This document shows, in pieces, positions 1 to 62,682 of a stretch of 64,000 nucleotides of DNA. The translations under genes and the position numbers were made by a program. A model generated the notes under the pieces. It was not told the DNA's origin and searched no databases. It was given only the letters and a program-made list of their open reading frames with translations. The stretch spans positions 1 through 64,000 of the forward strand of contig CATKXW010000006.1 in NCBI GenBank assembly GCA_949840905.1. Reading direction: 5' to 3'. The first letter of the stretch is position 1. Every line of letters begins with the position of its first letter. This stretch comes from an uncultured Eggerthellaceae bacterium (GTDB lineage Bacteria > Actinomycetota > Coriobacteriia > Coriobacteriales > Eggerthellaceae).

Positions 1-50
1 GCCGAAAGTACTACGACGTCAGGTCGTGGGAGGATAGGGCGTTCCGCTCA
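1..50 (+). rRNA. 5S rRNA, 3' end only
   Basis: The first 50 bases align by eye with the last third of bacterial 5S rRNA. They start at the GCCGA preceding helix IV, form an ACGAC/GTCGT hairpin (13-17 with 23-27), continue with the conserved GGGAGGATAGGG stretch, and end in GTTCCGCTC, which would be the 3' strand of the terminal stem. The 5' two thirds lie before the window, so an rRNA operon on the plus strand probably ends here. The exact 3' end is uncertain by a few bases. Confidence 0.78.
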
Positions 51-19747: not shown

Positions 19748-19781
19748 GAACAAAAGTACCGTAGTATGCTAACATATGTTC
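19748..19781. promoter_or_regulatory. Two SOS-box-like sites before the Y-family polymerase
   Basis: GAAC-aaaa-GTAC (19748-19759) and TAAC-atat-GTTC (19770-19781) each differ by one base from GAAC-N4-GTTC, the LexA core known in Gram-positive bacteria. They flank a TATGCT -10 candidate (19765-19770), and the second site ends directly before the ATG at 19783. Position and the function of the downstream gene support SOS control. Confidence 0.5.
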
Positions 19782-19782
19782 C

Positions 19783-21051
19783 ATGAAATCAGGGGAGCGC
19801 ACATATTGTTGCATCGACTTGAAGAGCTTCTATGCCAGTGTGGAATGCGCTGATAGAGGACTCGATCCCTATGAGACCGACCTGGTGGTGGCCGATCCGG
19901 CCCGCGGGGAGAAGACCATCTGTCTGGCGGTGTCACCGGCGCTGAAGGCGAAGGGGGTGCCCGGCCGCTGCCGGGTGTTCCAGATCCCGAAGCACCTCTC
20001 CTATATAAAGGCTCGGCCGCGCATGCGGCGCTATATGGAAGCGTCTGCTCAGATAGTGCGCATCTATCTGGAATACGTGAGCGCCGAAGACATGCACGTG
20101 TATTCCATCGACGAGTGCTTCATCGACCTGACGCCCTATCTCGGACTCTATGGCAAAACGGCTAAAGAGCTGGTGAACATGCTGCGCGAGGAGGTGCTGC
20201 GCCGCACCGGCATCACGGCCACGGCTGGCATCGGTCCCAATCTGTTCTTGGCGAAAGTAGCCCTCGACATAACGGCCAAGCACGTGGACGACAACATCGG
20301 CTTCCTCGACGAAGAGCTGTTCTGCGAGCAGATATGGGACCATCGGCCCATCACCGACGTGTGGCAGATCGGCCCTGGCATCGCCCGGCGGTTAGAGGCG
20401 CACGGCATTCGCGACCTGCGCGGCGTGGCCCATGCCAGCATCGACATGCTCTATCGCGAGTTCGGCGTGAACGCCGAATACCTCATCGACCATGCTTGGG
20501 GCCTCGAGCCGTGCACCATCGCCGACATCCATGCTTACGAGCCGAAAGGGAGCTCGCTCGGCAACGGGCAGGTGCTGCCATGCGATTACTCCTTCGAAGA
20601 AGGGCGCATGATATTGCGGGAGATGGTGGATGAGACGGTGCTCGACCTGGTGGGGAAGGGATTGACGACGGACCATGTGAGCCTGTACGTGGGTTACCGC
20701 AAAGACGAGGGCCTCGCGGGCCACCGAAGCGCGAGCCGCAAGCTGTCCTCCCACACCAGCTCGTTTCGCAAGCTGTGGACCATCATGGAAGAGCTCTACA
20801 ACGAGACGGTGGATGCGAGCCGTGCCATTCGCCGCGTCAACATGGCGTTCGGCGGCCTCATGCCTGAAGAGCACACCACGCGCGAGCTGTTCGCCGATAC
20901 CGCCGCCGAAGAGGCGGAGCACGACCGTCAGGAAGCCATCTTGGCCATCAAGAAGAAGTTCGGCACCGATGCTGTGATGAAGGGGACGTCGCTGAAGGAG
21001 AAGGCGCGCGGCTATGAGCGCGCCCATCAGGTAGGGGGCCATCATGAGTGA
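19783..21051 (+). CDS. Y-family DNA polymerase (UvrX/UmuC-like)
   Basis: A 422-residue translesion polymerase. Catalytic motifs: CIDLKSFYASVE (10-21, first acidic residue) and YSIDECFIDL (about 107-116, second acidic pair). Then IGPGIARRLEAHGI (about 197-210) in the HhH/thumb, and a C-terminal little-finger region. The spacing and the small downstream partner resemble the UvrX/YqjW group of Gram-positive bacteria rather than DinB Pol IV. Bypass synthesis on damaged DNA is inferred. The coding region overlaps the next gene by 8 bases. SOS-like boxes precede it. Confidence 0.88.
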   Translation: MKSGERTYCCIDLKSFYASVECADRGLDPYETDLVVADPARGEKTICLAVSPALKAKGVPGRCRVFQIPKHLSYIKARPRMRRYMEASAQIVRIYLEYVSAEDMHVYSIDECFIDLTPYLGLYGKTAKELVNMLREEVLRRTGITATAGIGPNLFLAKVALDITAKHVDDNIGFLDEELFCEQIWDHRPITDVWQIGPGIARRLEAHGIRDLRGVAHASIDMLYREFGVNAEYLIDHAWGLEPCTIADIHAYEPKGSSLGNGQVLPCDYSFEEGRMILREMVDETVLDLVGKGLTTDHVSLYVGYRKDEGLAGHRSASRKLSSHTSSFRKLWTIMEELYNETVDASRAIRRVNMAFGGLMPEEHTTRELFADTAAEEAEHDRQEAILAIKKKFGTDAVMKGTSLKEKARGYERAHQVGGHHE

Positions 21052-27533: not shown

Positions 27534-27547
27534 CGAACTTGTGTTCG
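27534..27547. promoter_or_regulatory. Consensus SOS-type box upstream of priA
   Basis: CGAAC-TTGT-GTTCG is a perfect 14-bp dyad identical to the Gram-positive LexA consensus CGAAC-N4-GTTCG. It abuts a TTGATG -35 candidate (27548-27553). Confidence 0.6.
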
Positions 27548-27587: not shown

Positions 27588-29939
27588 ATGCTGCTCGCTT
27601 CGGTCATATTGGACATTCCTACCCAGGCGCTCGATGCGCCCTATGCTTATGCGGTCGATGACGGCACGACCGCCCAGGATGTCCACTGGGCAGAGGTGGG
27701 CTGTGCGGTGTTGGTGCCCTTCGGGCGTCGCCGCGCCATCGGGTTCATCGTGGCGCTGGAGGAATGCGAGCCGAGCTCGTTGCCCGAGGGGGTCGATCCG
27801 ACGAAGCTGAAGACCATCGATCGGGTGGTCTCGAAGCCCTACTTCGATGAGGAGGGAGCTGCCTGCGCCCGCTATGTGGCCGAGCGCTACGTAGCGCCTC
27901 TTTCTGCGTGCGTGCGCCTGTTCACGCCGCCTGGCGGCGTGCCGCGGGTGGTGCAGGGCCGCAACGGCGGTTGGCGCTTGGAAGAGCCGGCCACCGCCGA
28001 GGTGGACGACCGCTGGGCGGTGCTAGGGCCTGCGGCCGATAGCTTCGAGCCGCGGAAGAACGCCGTGAAGCAGATCGCCGTTCTGGAGGCGTTGCGCAAG
28101 GGCGATCTGAGAGTGAGCGAGCTTTCCGTGGAGTTCGGATCGGTCTCTTCCACGTTGAAGGCGCTCGAAGAGAAGGGGGCCGTTCGCATCGAGCGGCGCC
28201 GTCGGATGCGCGGGGCGCCTGGCGCGTCCGGCCTGGCTGCCCCGGCGAGCTTCGCTGTCGGGCCGGGCGCGGTGGAGCTGACCGTGGGGCAGCGCGATGC
28301 GTTGGCGGCCATCGCGGCGGCTCGCGAGGCCGGGCGCGGCGACGTGGTGCTGGTGGATGGCGTGACCGGCTCGGGGAAGACGGAGGTGTACCTGCAGGCC
28401 ATCGCCGCTGTGCTGGCCGAAGGGCGCTCGGCCATGGTGCTGGTGCCCGAGATATCCCTCACGCCCCAGACCGTCGCGCGCTTCCGGGGGCGGTTCGGAG
28501 ATGCGGTGGCGGTCATGCACTCGCGCATGAGCACCGGCGAGCGCTACGACCAGTGGGACTTCATCCGCAGCGGTGCCGCTCGAGTGGTGGTGGGCGCCCG
28601 CAGCGCTCTGTTCACGCCGTTGGCGAACGTGGGGCTCATCGTGATAGACGAGGAGCACGAAGGCTCCTACAAGCAGGATAGCGCTCCGCGCTACCATGCG
28701 CGCGACGTGGCCGCTTGGATGATGGCTCGTTCGGGCGGCGTGCTGGTGCTGGGCTCGGCCACCCCTTCGGTGGAGACCCTGCACGCCTGCGCCACTCGCG
28801 AGGGGTGGCATCGCGTGGCGTTGCCCGAGCGGGCTAACGGCCGGCCGTTGCCGCAGGTGCACGTGATCGACATGGCCAAGGAGTTCCACGCAGGTTCGCG
28901 CTCGATGTTCTCGGGCGCTCTGACGCGGGCCTTGGAAGAGGAGCTCGTGGCCGGCCATAAGGCGGTGCTGTTGCTGAACCAGCGCGGCTTCGCGAAGTTC
29001 CTGCTGTGCCGCGATTGCGGCTTCGTGCCTCAGTGCGAGCACTGCGCCACCTCCCTCACCTTCCACGAACAGGGCAATCGTCTGGTGTGCCACCATTGCG
29101 GCCATGATGAGCCTGCGCCGCCCACCTGCCCGGAGTGCGGAAGCCCCTATCTCAAGAAGTTCGGTGCCGGCACCCAGCGGGTGGAAGCGGAGCTGCGCGC
29201 TCTGCTGGATGGCATGGGCTCGCTCGTGCGGGCGCGCGGGGAGGCGGGGCCGGTGCCCATCATCCGTATGGATGCCGATACCACCAAGCGCAAGGGCGCT
29301 CACCAAGAGCTGCTGGAGCGCTTCGCCTCGGAGGAGGCCGCCGTGCTGCTGGGCACCCAGATGATCGCGAAGGGACTCGACTTCGATGATGTGACCCTGG
29401 TGGGGGTCATCAACGCCGATACCCAGCTGCATCTGCCCGACTATCGCGCCGCCGAGCGCACCTTCGCACTGGTGGAGCAGGTGGCGGGCCGTGCGGGCCG
29501 CGCCGAGCTGCCGGGACGGGTGATGGTGCAGACCTACGAGGCTCAGGCGCCCGCCATTCGCGCCGCGGCCGCCTACGATCGCGCCGCCTTCCTGAAAGAG
29601 GAGCTGCCCCAGCGCAAGGCGTTCGGCTATCCTCCCTATGTGCGCATGACGAACATCCTGCTGTGGGGCGCCGATGCCCAGGAGGTGCGCGAAGAGGCCG
29701 AGCGCGTTCATGACCAGCTGAAACAGTTGGTCTTCGAGCTGGCTGGCGATCGCTGGACGTTGTTCCCGGCGGCCCCCTGCGCCCTGAGCAAGCTGCGCAA
29801 CACCTATCGCTACCATATCCTGCTGAAATGCCCGCCCGAAGATGATATGGCGGGGCGTTTGGCCGTGCTGTTCCGCGGCCGGAAGGCGCACCCGTCGGTG
29901 AACGTGGCTGTGGACGTGGATCCCACCGATCTGCTGTAG
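27588..29939 (+). CDS. priA: Primosomal replication restart helicase PriA
   Basis: 783 residues. An N-terminal 3'-DNA-binding and winged region precedes the helicase core: Walker A DGVTGSGKTEVY (about 259-270), VVGARSALFTPL, DEEHEGSYKQD (DEEH box, about 351-361) and GSATPS. A zinc-binding module with eight cysteines spans about 475-520 (CRDCGF, CEHCAT, CHHCG, CPECG). Helicase motifs V/VI lie at about 590-640 (GTQMIAKGLDF; QVAGRAGRAELPG). It reloads the replisome at stalled forks. A consensus SOS-like box lies just upstream. Confidence 0.95.
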   Translation: MLLASVILDIPTQALDAPYAYAVDDGTTAQDVHWAEVGCAVLVPFGRRRAIGFIVALEECEPSSLPEGVDPTKLKTIDRVVSKPYFDEEGAACARYVAERYVAPLSACVRLFTPPGGVPRVVQGRNGGWRLEEPATAEVDDRWAVLGPAADSFEPRKNAVKQIAVLEALRKGDLRVSELSVEFGSVSSTLKALEEKGAVRIERRRRMRGAPGASGLAAPASFAVGPGAVELTVGQRDALAAIAAAREAGRGDVVLVDGVTGSGKTEVYLQAIAAVLAEGRSAMVLVPEISLTPQTVARFRGRFGDAVAVMHSRMSTGERYDQWDFIRSGAARVVVGARSALFTPLANVGLIVIDEEHEGSYKQDSAPRYHARDVAAWMMARSGGVLVLGSATPSVETLHACATREGWHRVALPERANGRPLPQVHVIDMAKEFHAGSRSMFSGALTRALEEELVAGHKAVLLLNQRGFAKFLLCRDCGFVPQCEHCATSLTFHEQGNRLVCHHCGHDEPAPPTCPECGSPYLKKFGAGTQRVEAELRALLDGMGSLVRARGEAGPVPIIRMDADTTKRKGAHQELLERFASEEAAVLLGTQMIAKGLDFDDVTLVGVINADTQLHLPDYRAAERTFALVEQVAGRAGRAELPGRVMVQTYEAQAPAIRAAAAYDRAAFLKEELPQRKAFGYPPYVRMTNILLWGADAQEVREEAERVHDQLKQLVFELAGDRWTLFPAAPCALSKLRNTYRYHILLKCPPEDDMAGRLAVLFRGRKAHPSVNVAVDVDPTDLL

Positions 29940-45336: not shown

Positions 45337-46261
45337 GGGCTGCCGCCTCTGCCCTCGCCTCTGCGGGGCGCGCCGAGAGGCGGGAGAGCGCGGCCTGTGC
45401 GGGGCAGGCGCACAGGTGCGCGTGGCACGGGCAGCTCTACACTTCTGGGAAGAGCCTCCCATCTCAGGGGGAGCGGGCAGCGGCACGATCTTCTTCGCCC
45501 ATTGCCCGCTCGGCTGTATCTATTGTCAGAACCGCGCTATCTCTCACGAAGAGGTGGGGGAGGTGGCATCGGTACAGCGTCTGGTTGCTCTGATGCTCGA
45601 TCTGCAAGCGCGAGGTGCGCTCAACATCAATTGCGTCACGCCCACCCACTATGCTCCCACCATCCGCGAAGCGGTGGCCTGTGCGCGGGAGGACGGCCTG
45701 GATCTGCCCATCATATGGAACACGAGCGGGTATGAGACCGTGGAGGCGGTCCGCGCGAATCGCGGCACCGTCGATGTCTATCTGACCGACTTCAAGTACG
45801 CTGATGCTTCTCTGGGCGAGCGATATTCGCGCGTAAGGGATTATCCGCAGCGGGCGCTCGCTGCGTTGGAGGCCATGGTGGAAGCGGTGGGCGCTCCCTG
45901 CTTCGATGAATATCGAGGGGAAGGGCGCATGGTGGGCGGCGTGGTAGTGCGTCATCTGCTGTTGCCGGGTCATCTGGATGATTCCAAGCGCGTGGTCGCG
46001 CTGCTGCACGAGCGCTTCGGCGAGAACATCCGTTTTTCACTGATGAACCAGTACACGCCCGTTTTGGCGACGGCCGCTGCTGCTGGCGATGAGGATGCGG
46101 CGCGCATCCTCGGTCTGTTCCCTCACCTGGGCGAGACCGTTCCCGAAGCCGACTACGAGGAGCTTCTCGATCATGCGGATAACCTGGGCGTCCAGGATTA
46201 CTTCTGGCAGCAAGGAGGCACGTGCTCGGAGTCGTTCATCCCTGAATTCCCAGTGAGGTGA
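45302..46261 (+). CDS. PflX-like radical SAM protein
   Basis: 319 residues of the pyruvate-formate-lyase-activase-like family (COG1313 type). The radical SAM cluster motif CPLGCIYC lies at about 69-76. Upstream are extra cysteines CRLCPRLC and LCGAG (about 15-35), which could hold a second cluster. Later come NCVTPTHYAPTIREA, WNTSGYE and YLTDFKYAD, and a near-terminal MNQYTPV. The physiological substrate is unknown. The start is uncertain (45299 or 45302; no ribosome site) and lies within the preceding gene, implying coupling. The 3' end overlaps the convergent gene by 64 bases. Confidence 0.82.
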   Translation: MTDSATITLPTEGCRLCPRLCGARREAGERGLCGAGAQVRVARAALHFWEEPPISGGAGSGTIFFAHCPLGCIYCQNRAISHEEVGEVASVQRLVALMLDLQARGALNINCVTPTHYAPTIREAVACAREDGLDLPIIWNTSGYETVEAVRANRGTVDVYLTDFKYADASLGERYSRVRDYPQRALAALEAMVEAVGAPCFDEYRGEGRMVGGVVVRHLLLPGHLDDSKRVVALLHERFGENIRFSLMNQYTPVLATAAAAGDEDAARILGLFPHLGETVPEADYEELLDHADNLGVQDYFWQQGGTCSESFIPEFPVR

Positions 46262-47187
46262 GAGCTGCGAGGCGCAAGGGAAGGAAGGTCTTCCTGCAGC
46301 TCGGTGAGGTTTCGCCAGAAGCGCTTAGGCATGAAGTGCTGGCGCAGCTCGGGGTTGTAGCGCGACTCGACGGCTACCGTGCGGTAGAACCGCTTCCAGG
46401 CTTGTTGCATGGGCGCCTCGTCAGCGGCCCTGTCGGGGAGTCGGAGCTCTGGTGAGCCCGTTTCCTCGGTGGGCACGAGATACCAGCTACGGCCTTCGTA
46501 GACACCGGCGAGATGGTGTTCCTCATCGTAGATGATGAAGGGCTGCACGTTGAAGCGCTCGACGAAGTGGTCCATGACCAAAGGGATGACCGACGACTTC
46601 GGATTGCAGCGGGCATACCACAGGTCCACCTCCGCATCGCGCAGGTGCTCGAAGCGGATGAACTGGCGCATATGCTCGCATTCTTGGTCGATGGAGCGGA
46701 GGATGCGATGCATCGGCTCTACAGCTGGATGAGTGATATCCGATAGCGCGCGCCCGCGCAGCTTCGAGCACGGGCCTTTGCCACCGACTCCCTTGCAGCT
46801 TTTGCGCTTGCGGCATCGCGAGCAATCGCGGCGTTTCTGCTCGTCTAGGGCATAGCGCACGAAGCGATAGGCCGCGGTGCCCGCGTCGTGCCGCTCCGAT
46901 AGGCTAGCTTTCTTCACCGCGTCGAAGGTGCGCCAGCCGCAGCGGGCCTCGATCCCCTTGCGCACGCGCTCGGCATGGTGCAGGTCGGTCTCGATGAAGC
47001 TCACTCGCTGTCCGAGCCGTGGCTGCAGGTGCTGTTCGCACACCACGTCGGTCGGGTCCTCATGGTTCGCGTAGGCAGCGAATATGGCCGATAGCAGACC
47101 TTCGAGGCTGCGATCGTAGCAATAGACTACCTCAGACGTTATGTCATCAGGCGTCACGACCTTGGTACCATGGGCTCTTGTGCTCAT
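46198..47187 (-). CDS. TIGR03915/DUF4130-type DNA-metabolism protein with Cys4 insertion
   Basis: 329 residues; partner of the radical SAM protein encoded upstream, whose end it overlaps by ATGA. N-terminal YDRSLEGLLSAIFAAY (24-39) and C-terminal HMRQFIRFEHL ... DLWYARCNPKSSVIPLVMDHFVERF (172-211 in outline) and GVYEGRSWYLV match the family. Between the two halves (120-142) sits DCSRCRKRKSCKGVGGKGPC, a C-x2-C-x5-C-x8-C arrangement rich in Lys and Arg that I do not expect in the family and that could bind Zn or an Fe-S cluster and contact nucleic acid. The family is predicted to act in DNA repair or modification. Confidence 0.82.
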   Translation of the reverse strand: MSTRAHGTKVVTPDDITSEVVYCYDRSLEGLLSAIFAAYANHEDPTDVVCEQHLQPRLGQRVSFIETDLHHAERVRKGIEARCGWRTFDAVKKASLSERHDAGTAAYRFVRYALDEQKRRDCSRCRKRKSCKGVGGKGPCSKLRGRALSDITHPAVEPMHRILRSIDQECEHMRQFIRFEHLRDAEVDLWYARCNPKSSVIPLVMDHFVERFNVQPFIIYDEEHHLAGVYEGRSWYLVPTEETGSPELRLPDRAADEAPMQQAWKRFYRTVAVESRYNPELRQHFMPKRFWRNLTELQEDLPSLAPRSSHLTGNSGMNDSEHVPPCCQK

Positions 47188-48596
47188 GAGGCGAACAGTG
47201 CTTCCGGTTCAGGCAGCGGGTTCGCAGCGGCTGGGAGAGCGGTCTCGCTGCGGGTCCCGCGCAGCTTCTCTGGGGTCTCGACGGAATCGAAGAGGTTCAG
47301 CTGGCCTGGCAGGGCACGGGCGGCACGGCGACCGTGGCGACCTCCTTGGATGGGCGCTGCCAGCCGCGCGCGCAGCGCTTCGCGAGTGAAGGCGACCCCT
47401 GCGCCCTCATAGCGGCCGTTGCAGGTGATGAAGTAGCGAGCGCGCTTGTAGGCCACGCCTAAAGCGCGCAGCTCCTGTTCGTGCAGCGTCGATTGGCGCC
47501 GTGCTCGCAGGATGAGCTGGGCTCCGCGGATGCCGATGCCCGGCACGCGCACCAACTGCTCCAAAGGAGCGGTGTTCACCTCCACGGGAAAGAGGTCGAG
47601 GTGGTTCAAGGCCCAGTTCGCCTTCGGATCGATGGCGGTATCGAGGAAGGGGGCTCGCTCGTCGATTATCTCGGTGACGTCGTAGCCGTAGAAGCGCAGC
47701 AGCCAGTCGGCTTGGTAGAGGCGGTGCTCGCGGTCGAGCTGCACCGCGTCGGTGCTCGGAAGCCGTGCATCCTCGTTCACGGGCAGATAGGCGCTGAAGA
47801 ACACGCGCTTCATGGCGAATGTGCGGTACAGCGAGGCGGTCAGGTTGAGTATCTGCAGGTCGCTCTCGGGAGAAGCGCCCACGATCATCTGGGTGGACTG
47901 GCCGGCCGGCACATAGGCTCGGGTCTTGCGTACCAGACGCGTGCGTCCCGACATATACAAGGTGTTCTTGCTCATGAGCGCGCGGGTGTCGCCATCCTCG
48001 GCGCGCATGGATTCGATGCGGCGCATGGGCATCAGGATGTCCTCGCGGCTCTTCTGCGGGGCGAGCAGCTGCAGACTGCTGTTCGATGGCAACTCGAGGT
48101 TCACTGACATGCGATCGACCAGATAGCCGATGCGGTCCATCAGCTCGGGGCTGGTGCCTGGTACCACTTTGGCGTGTATGTAGCCGCGGAACCCGAGGTC
48201 TTCTCGGAGGATGCGGAATGTCTCGCACATCAGTTCGCTAGTGAAGTCGGGGTCGCGGACGACGCCCGAGCTGAGGAACAGTCCCTCGATATAATTGCGC
48301 CGATAGAATCCGATGGTGAGCTCGGCCAGCTCGCGAGGCCTGAAGCAGGTGCGCTGCACGTTCTCGTTGCTCGCGCGGTTCACGCAATAAGCACAGTCAT
48401 AGATGCATACGTTGGTCATCAGGACCTTCAACAGCGTGATGCACCGGCCATCGGCCGAGAAGCTGTGGCAGCACCCGGCCATCGTCGCCGACCCGAGCTG
48501 TCCTTTCTTCCCGCTGCGCTGCACGCCGGAGGAGGTGCATGCCACGTCGTACTTCGCTGCGTCGGCTAGCAGTTCGAGCTTTTCCGCGATTTCCAC
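47184..48596 (-). CDS. TIGR03916-type radical SAM protein, predicted DNA repair
   Basis: 470 residues. Radical SAM cluster CIYDCAYC (64-71) after an N-terminal helical region with extra Cys pairs (GCCHSF, 41-46). FLSSGVVRDPD (about 106-116), LELPSNSSLQLLAPQKS and an HhH DNA-binding element LVRVPGIGIRGAQLIL (about 347-362) near the end. The combination of radical SAM chemistry and HhH suggests action on damaged or modified DNA, as predicted for the TIGR03916 group; the reaction is not known. GTG start at 48596 with a perfect AAGGAGG. A promoter with an SOS-like dyad lies upstream. Confidence 0.88.
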   Translation of the reverse strand: MEIAEKLELLADAAKYDVACTSSGVQRSGKKGQLGSATMAGCCHSFSADGRCITLLKVLMTNVCIYDCAYCVNRASNENVQRTCFRPRELAELTIGFYRRNYIEGLFLSSGVVRDPDFTSELMCETFRILREDLGFRGYIHAKVVPGTSPELMDRIGYLVDRMSVNLELPSNSSLQLLAPQKSREDILMPMRRIESMRAEDGDTRALMSKNTLYMSGRTRLVRKTRAYVPAGQSTQMIVGASPESDLQILNLTASLYRTFAMKRVFFSAYLPVNEDARLPSTDAVQLDREHRLYQADWLLRFYGYDVTEIIDERAPFLDTAIDPKANWALNHLDLFPVEVNTAPLEQLVRVPGIGIRGAQLILRARRQSTLHEQELRALGVAYKRARYFITCNGRYEGAGVAFTREALRARLAAPIQGGRHGRRAARALPGQLNLFDSVETPEKLRGTRSETALPAAANPLPEPEALFAS

Positions 48597-48643
48597 AGCA
48601 CGACCTCCTTCGAAACATTCGTACGCGCGAATAGGTGTTTGTA

Positions 48644-48672
48644 ACTTTACGCGAACGAACTTTCGCGGTCAA
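48644..48672 (-). promoter_or_regulatory. Promoter with SOS-like box in the spacer
   Basis: In minus orientation TTGACC (plus 48667-48672), exactly 17 bases, then TAAAGT (plus 48644-48649). The spacer contains CGAAA-GTTC-GTTCG (plus 48652-48665), one base off the CGAAC-N4-GTTCG LexA consensus. A repressor there would block RNA polymerase directly. Confidence 0.65.
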
Positions 48673-48881
48673 GGGCTTTCGTCTGTCTCGAGAACGTGGC
48701 AGCGCTCCGCGTTCGATCTTCCCTCTTCTTCATGGTGCATAGCAGAGAAGATCCTCCTCGCGGCATTGTGCTATCACGAACGTGGTGCTGCATCGCTGTT
48801 GGCAACCTCTATAATGACGTCATCGCGCCGGAGGCGATAGAGAGACCTTCGGCATCTACGAAATAGGGGGTATGTTCGATC

Positions 48882-49286
48882 ATGGGCAAGAAGAAGCTTT
48901 TGGCACTGTTCGCATGCGCGCTCCTCGCCGCTACGATGGTGTTGGCAGGATGCTCGTCGGGGCCGTCGGTGGCTGACGAGGGTGCTGCTGACGTGGCGGG
49001 CACCTATCTGTGCGAGTCGGTCTACATGGATGGTGAAGAGGCATCGGGCTATTCCGACAAGCTGATTCTCGAGGAGAACGGCAAGGGCGTCTGCGTTTAC
49101 GAGGACGAGGAGTTCGACCTTCGGTGGGAGCTCAACGGCACAGCTATCGCCTGGTCTGACGAATCGGGCGACAAGTTCAAGGGGACCGTCGACTTCGAGA
49201 ACGGTACTATATCCGGCGTCTATAGCATCGACTTCGCGGAAGGCGAGCACGGGGAGCTGGATTACGTGTTCAAGAAGGTGCAGTGA
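48882..49286 (+). CDS. Small lipoprotein with lipocalin-like beta domain
   Basis: 134 residues. The signal peptide ends in the lipobox VLAGC (Cys at about 23), so the mature protein is lipid-anchored. After a Ser/Gly linker, residues about 38-134 form a beta-rich domain (VAGTYLCESVYMDG, LILEENGKGVCVYED, FKGTVDFENGTISGVYSID) resembling small lipocalin-like or DUF-type lipoproteins. No enzymatic motif. AGGGGG precedes the ATG. A perfect terminator follows. Confidence 0.75.
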   Translation: MGKKKLLALFACALLAATMVLAGCSSGPSVADEGAADVAGTYLCESVYMDGEEASGYSDKLILEENGKGVCVYEDEEFDLRWELNGTAIAWSDESGDKFKGTVDFENGTISGVYSIDFAEGEHGELDYVFKKVQ

Positions 49287-62616: not shown

Positions 62617-62645
62617 TTGCGAGCGAAGAACAGATGTTCTATCAT
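62617..62645 (+). promoter_or_regulatory. ruvCAB promoter with consensus SOS-type box
   Basis: TTGCGA (62617-62622), exactly 17 bases, TATCAT (62640-62645). The spacer contains AGAAC-AGAT-GTTCT (62627-62640), a perfect dyad with the GAAC-N4-GTTC LexA core, ending at the -10 box. A second ACGAACTTTCG (62654-62664) downstream recurs in the radical SAM gene promoter. Confidence 0.75.
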
Positions 62646-62682
62646 ACGGGGAAACGAACTTTCGACGGGAAGGCTCCTCACG

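What the first reader, a model, noticed from the sequence alone, without database searches (positions are those of the whole stretch)
48644..48672. SOS-type operator inside the promoter of a predicted radical SAM DNA-repair pair
A good promoter (TTGACC, 17 bases, TAAAGT, minus strand) has a CGAAA-GTTC-GTTCG dyad in its spacer, one base from the LexA consensus. It drives the TIGR03916-type radical SAM/HhH protein and its coupled TIGR03915-type partner (46198-48596). Their DNA role is so far mainly predicted; damage-inducible control would be direct support. The same ACGAACTTTCG string recurs near the ruvC promoter.
Basis: partly seen in the sequence, partly recalled or inferred. Interest (0 to 1): 0.8.

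Follow-up and report, generated by a model that had tools for sequence, protein, structure and literature searches.

The report
DNA-damage switch on radical-SAM repair genes
The promoter of two little-understood, probably DNA-repairing genes carries the binding sites of the bacterial DNA-damage repressor LexA, and so do the promoters of the same gene pair in nearly all related species and many other Gram-positive bacteria; this supports a repair role, but such control had already been predicted in other groups.

Summary
On the minus strand, TTGACC-17-TAAAGT (48672-48644) holds the dyad CGAAAGTTCGTTCG (48652-48665) in its spacer, before a TIGR03916 radical SAM gene and its overlapping TIGR03915/DUF4130 partner. 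Alone the site is weak: 6.4 bits against a LexA matrix built from 30 related lexA promoters, reached in 11% of shuffled promoters. Two further degenerate boxes follow 24 and 16 bp downstream, in the register seen in relatives; no shuffle of 2000 reached the three-box score. Conservation is decisive. A LexA box above the 99% null stands before this gene in 28 of 30 family/order genomes, usually inside a TTGACA-17-TATAAT spacer, against 24/30 for ruvC (positive control) and 2/30 for priA (negative control). In 80 wider loci, mostly Clostridia, 51 have one; in-gene control 0. LexA/SOS control is well supported by sequence, not shown by experiment. It is not new in kind: LexA control of this pair was predicted in Clostridium acetobutylicum and Bacteroidetes, and reported earlier for Verrucomicrobia and Alphaproteobacteria. 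New here are Coriobacteriia, the conserved multi-box operator, and a partner lacking the uracil-DNA glycosylase domain. The 'ruvC repeat' is probably incidental.

The parts
48667..48672 (-). -35 hexamer TTGACC
   Evidence: aligned with TTGACA/TTGACC in relatives
48652..48665 (-). LexA-type box 1, CGAAAGTTCGTTCG, in the 17-bp spacer
   Evidence: box in the same place in most relatives
48644..48649 (-). -10 hexamer TAAAGT
48628..48641 (-). Degenerate LexA-type box 2, CAAACACCTATTCG, 24 bp after box 1
   Evidence: relatives have CGAACNNNNATTCG-like box 2 at 23-29 bp
48612..48625 (-). Degenerate LexA-type box 3, CGTACGAATGTTTC, 16 bp after box 2
   Evidence: relatives share the 16-bp step
47184..48596 (-). 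Radical SAM + helix-hairpin-helix protein, TIGR03916 (GTG start), 470 aa
   Evidence: CxxxCxxC C64/C68/C71 invariant
46198..47187 (-). Partner, TIGR03915/DUF4130, 329 aa, overlaps the first gene by 4 bp, no UDG domain
62627..62640 (+). Comparison site: strong LexA box AGAACAGATGTTCT before ruvC (22.4 bits, best in window)
   Evidence: box conserved before ruvC in 24 of 30 relatives

Best explanation
The TIGR03916-TIGR03915 pair is a two-gene SOS operon. In undamaged cells LexA binds a tandem operator: box 1 inside the -35/-10 spacer and boxes 2 and 3 over the start of transcription. It thereby keeps RNA polymerase off the promoter. DNA damage makes RecA filaments, LexA cuts itself, and the pair is made: a radical SAM enzyme with a DNA-binding helix-hairpin-helix and its DUF4130 partner, which probably repair or remodel damaged bases together. 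Shown here: the site, the promoter, the gene identities, and conservation of the operator. Inferred: LexA occupancy, repression, induction, and the repair reaction. In this genome the boxes are weaker than in relatives, so repression is probably looser.
For: LexA matrix built only from 48 lexA-promoter sites of related genomes, independent of this operon. 28/30 rSAM promoters exceed the 99% shuffle null; ruvC 24/30 and priA 2/30 under the same score. Unbiased dyad count without the own locus: the top dyads are all pieces of the LexA box, up to 19 of 29 promoters, against 4-6 in shuffles. Most relatives place the box in a TTGACA-15..18-TATAAT spacer. Own three-box register 24+16 bp: 0 of 2000 shuffles. 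51 of 80 wider loci have a box, in-gene control 0/80. The genome has LexA with perfect boxes at its own gene. In one locus without a box, L067, the gene sits 7 bp behind a Y-family polymerase.
Against: The own box 1 alone is not significant (p 0.11) and boxes 2 and 3 are poor. 29 of 80 wider loci have no strong LexA box, including Geobacter, Elusimicrobia and the Gemmiger group. No expression or binding data exist for this organism.
Confidence: 0.87

Rival explanations
1. The operon is LexA-controlled in relatives, but in this species the operator has decayed and LexA no longer represses it to a useful degree; the boxes are relics.
For: Own site 6.4 bits against 10-22 bits in most relatives; box 1 has CGAAA and a centre unlike the A/T-rich consensus. 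The same-genus genome G001 keeps a full CGAACAAGAGTTCG.
Against: All three boxes are still recognisable in register, and the outer CGAA/TTCG arms of box 1 are intact within a perfect 6-bp dyad.
Confidence: 0.1
2. The dyad is the operator of a different repressor, such as an XRE-S24 regulator, and only resembles a LexA box.
For: In five Gemmiger/Ruthenibacterium/Faecalibacterium-like loci without LexA boxes, an HTH_3-Peptidase_S24 gene lies directly upstream of the pair.
Against: In Coriobacteriia the boxes match the boxes at lexA itself and at ruvC, and the genomes carry LexA.
Confidence: 0.03

Closest known systems
LexA-controlled CAC3343-CAC3344 operon of Clostridium acetobutylicum (PMC3828012)
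   Same: Same radical SAM gene followed by a gene of unknown function; LexA control inferred from footprint analysis and expression clustering.
   Different: Another phylum; a single-genome prediction; no multi-box operator described in the passages read.
SOS-controlled COG1573-COG4277 operon of Bacteroidetes, also reported for Verrucomicrobia and Alphaproteobacteria (PMC8565304 and its references)
   Same: Two-gene operon under SOS control; that COG4277 corresponds to the TIGR03916 radical SAM/HhH family is my own knowledge.
   Different: Their operon is described with a uracil-DNA glycosylase (COG1573) and other operator motifs; here the partner has only DUF4130 (37 of 37 partners scanned) and the motif is Gram-positive CGAACN4GTTCG.
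DUF4130 linked to SplB-like radical SAM and UDG (PMC3765255)
   Same: Same partner family, called a predicted mutagenesis-related enzyme in SOS gene neighbourhoods.
   Different: That was neighbourhood evidence, not promoter evidence.

Membership tests
LexA/SOS regulon | Genome encodes LexA | tested here: met
   G000 C2:83237-83425, 86 bits
LexA/SOS regulon | LexA box in the promoter of the operon in this genome | tested here: met
   Weak singly (p 0.11); significant as three boxes in register
LexA/SOS regulon | Box conserved before the orthologous gene | tested here: met
   28/30 relatives, 51/80 wider loci
LexA/SOS regulon | Purified LexA binds; transcript rises after DNA damage | not testable with these tools
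   Needs EMSA and RT-qPCR
TIGR03916 (rSAM_link_UDG) | Model score over the curated cut-off; CxxxCxxC cluster; HhH region | tested here: met
   579.5 against 343.5 bits; C64/C68/C71 invariant; HHH_3 at residues 338-368, 21.9 bits, under its Pfam cut-off
TIGR03915/DUF4130 | Model score over the curated cut-off | tested here: met
   199 against 112 bits
UDG-based base excision operon (COG1573-COG4277) | Partner carries a uracil-DNA glycosylase domain | tested here: not met
   Only DUF4130 in the partner, here and in 36 relatives; the UDGs of this genome lie elsewhere
Spore photoproduct lyase (SplB) | Fold or sequence match to a known lyase structure | tested here: inconclusive
   No PDB sequence match; the fold search gives generic radical SAM barrels led by HydE

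The most novel reading that the evidence does not exclude
The radical SAM-DUF4130 pair without any glycosylase is a core SOS repair enzyme of Gram-positive bacteria, kept under DNA-damage control through changes of repressor (LexA in most, perhaps a neighbouring XRE-S24 repressor in the Gemmiger group). The substrate would then be a damage product, and explanations resting on the UDG domain alone would be incomplete.
Probability: 0.4. Interest if true: 0.6.

Novelty: new member of a known kind. Interest (0 to 1): 0.42.

Why it matters
The function of this widespread pair is only predicted. Consistent placement under the DNA-damage repressor in distant lineages, with or without the glycosylase domain, is the best available sign that the pair acts on damaged DNA, and it tells the experimenter when to look: after mitomycin C or UV. 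It also describes LexA boxes in Coriobacteriia, for which my literature searches found no study.

Tried and rejected
ACGAACTTTCG as a second regulatory motif shared with ruvC: its 12-base extension occurs four times genome-wide, once inside a coding region and once before a ferredoxin-like gene, so no common theme; at ruvC it lies 24 bp after the real box and may be a degenerate second box. Perfect box before priA (27534): rejected as a conserved SOS site, 2 of 30 relatives, one of them the window's own. Solved-structure relatives by sequence: none useful. DUF4130 fold: best hits are DHH-type phosphatases and RecJ with TM under 0.3, not trusted. Defence-system models: no match. Plasmid copies: none. 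Geobacter-type and alphaproteobacterial LexA motifs before box-less loci: none found.

Full report
OBSERVATION. On the minus strand, TTGACC-17-TAAAGT (48672-48644) is the only sigma-70-type promoter in 48300-49000 (0.1 expected from shuffles). Its spacer, GCGAAAGTTCGTTCGCG, contains CGAAAGTTCGTTCG, one mismatch from CGAACN4GTTCG. The next gene, 47184-48596, is TIGR03916 (579 bits) and overlaps by 4 bp the TIGR03915/DUF4130 gene 46198-47187.

CHANCE. One-mismatch sites are frequent in this genome: 147 per strand against 87 for the reversed pattern. A LexA matrix was therefore built from 48 sites in lexA promoters of related Coriobacteriia genomes (30 loci read, a start found in most); the rSAM operon did not enter it. 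The best own site scores 6.4 bits, reached by 11% of shuffles of that promoter. Taken alone it would not stand.

CONSERVATION. Upstream of the same gene in 30 genomes of the family and order, 28 promoters exceed the 99% shuffle level of 11.3 bits, with typical values of 12-22. The exceptions are the window itself and L021, whose box lies at -247, beyond the 200 bp scanned. Controls with the same matrix: ruvC, an expected SOS gene, 24 of 30 (one of the six failures, L203, is mis-anchored inside the gene); priA, whose promoter in this window holds a perfect-looking site, 2 of 30 including the window's own. A count of all spaced tetramer pairs, with no motif given and the own locus left out, puts pieces of the LexA box on top: 19 of 29 promoters, against 4-6 for the best pair in shuffles. 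In most relatives the box fills the spacer of a TTGACA-15..18-TATAAT promoter, exactly as here.

ARCHITECTURE. Several relatives carry two or three boxes: box 1 in the spacer, box 2 some 23-29 bp on (often ending ATTCG instead of GTTCG), box 3 another 16 bp on. The window has the same layout at 24 and 16 bp: 48652-48665, 48628-48641 and 48612-48625. The summed score was not reached in 2000 shuffles. The spacing range was chosen after looking at all 30 loci, the own one included, so this figure is somewhat optimistic.

WIDER. A collection scan gave 80 named loci, mostly Clostridia, with Coriobacteriia, Paenibacillus, Enterococcus, Geobacter and others. 51 have a box over the 99% level within 250 bp; stretches inside the gene, 0 of 80. 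Several rows are near relatives, so the count is not 51 independent events. Among loci without a box, L067 has the pair 7 bp behind a Y-family polymerase, and five Gemmiger/Ruthenibacterium/Faecalibacterium-like loci have an HTH-Peptidase_S24 repressor gene directly upstream. Geobacter and Elusimicrobia loci showed nothing recognisable.

WHAT THE PAIR IS. The radical SAM protein has invariant C64/C68/C71 (the CxxxCxxC cluster) and further invariant C20, C43 and C52, plus a C-terminal HhH. Its model gives generic radical SAM barrels (mean pLDDT 79). The partner contains DUF4130 only; 37 of 37 partners scanned have no UDG. In three loci the two proteins are one open frame (L061, L065, L085), which argues that they act together. 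The reaction is unknown.

MECHANISM. LexA on box 1 would block -35/-10 recognition, and boxes 2 and 3 would extend the block over the start site; RecA-stimulated self-cleavage would release it. Shown: site, promoter, genes, conservation, presence of LexA. Inferred: binding, induction, repair activity.

KNOWN OR NEW. PMC3828012 already proposed LexA control of CAC3343-CAC3344, a radical SAM repair protein plus an unknown protein. PMC8565304 predicts SOS control of COG1573-COG4277 in Bacteroidetes and cites earlier reports in Verrucomicrobia and Alphaproteobacteria. PMC3765255 links DUF4130 to SOS neighbourhoods. The control is therefore of a known kind. The additions are Coriobacteriia, a conserved multi-box operator, the breadth in Gram-positives, and the absence of UDG. 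No paper on LexA in Coriobacteriia or Eggerthella came up, within the limits of an open-licence library.

RUVC REMARK. The string near ruvC is real (62654-62664), but the ruvC operator is AGAACAGATGTTCT at 62627-62640, the best LexA site in the window (22.4 bits). The string falls in a register 24 bp downstream and may be a degenerate second box or nothing.

Noticed in passing
19769-19782: LexA-like box CTAACATATGTTCC (13.6 bits) directly before the ATG at 19783 of a Y-family polymerase (PF00817); another probable SOS gene, or the true start codon is further downstream.
   Followed up: partly
27534-27547: Perfect CGAACTTGTGTTCG 40 bp before the priA start at 27588, but not conserved in relatives (2 of 30): a caution against single-genome motif calls.
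   Followed up: yes
L070 1550-2302, L085 821-1444, L087 1588-2367, L118 1296-1886, L136 1813-2421: In five Gemmiger/Ruthenibacterium/Faecalibacterium-like loci without a LexA box, an XRE-Peptidase_S24 repressor gene lies directly upstream of the radical SAM gene; possibly a substitute damage-sensing repressor.
   Followed up: partly
window 46198-47187, protein residues 121-141; also L062, L063: Cysteine-rich insertion (DCSRCRKRKSCKGVGGKGPC) in the DUF4130 protein of Eggerthellaceae, absent from the Bacillota partners; possible metal or Fe-S site.
   Followed up: no
L061 2422-4947, L065 2473-4806, L085 1524-3665: Radical SAM and DUF4130 in one open reading frame (713-841 aa).
   Followed up: no
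L001: lexA of this genome has two boxes 28 bp apart; relatives show three at about 28-bp steps, a different spacing from the 24+16 bp of the radical SAM operon.
   Followed up: no
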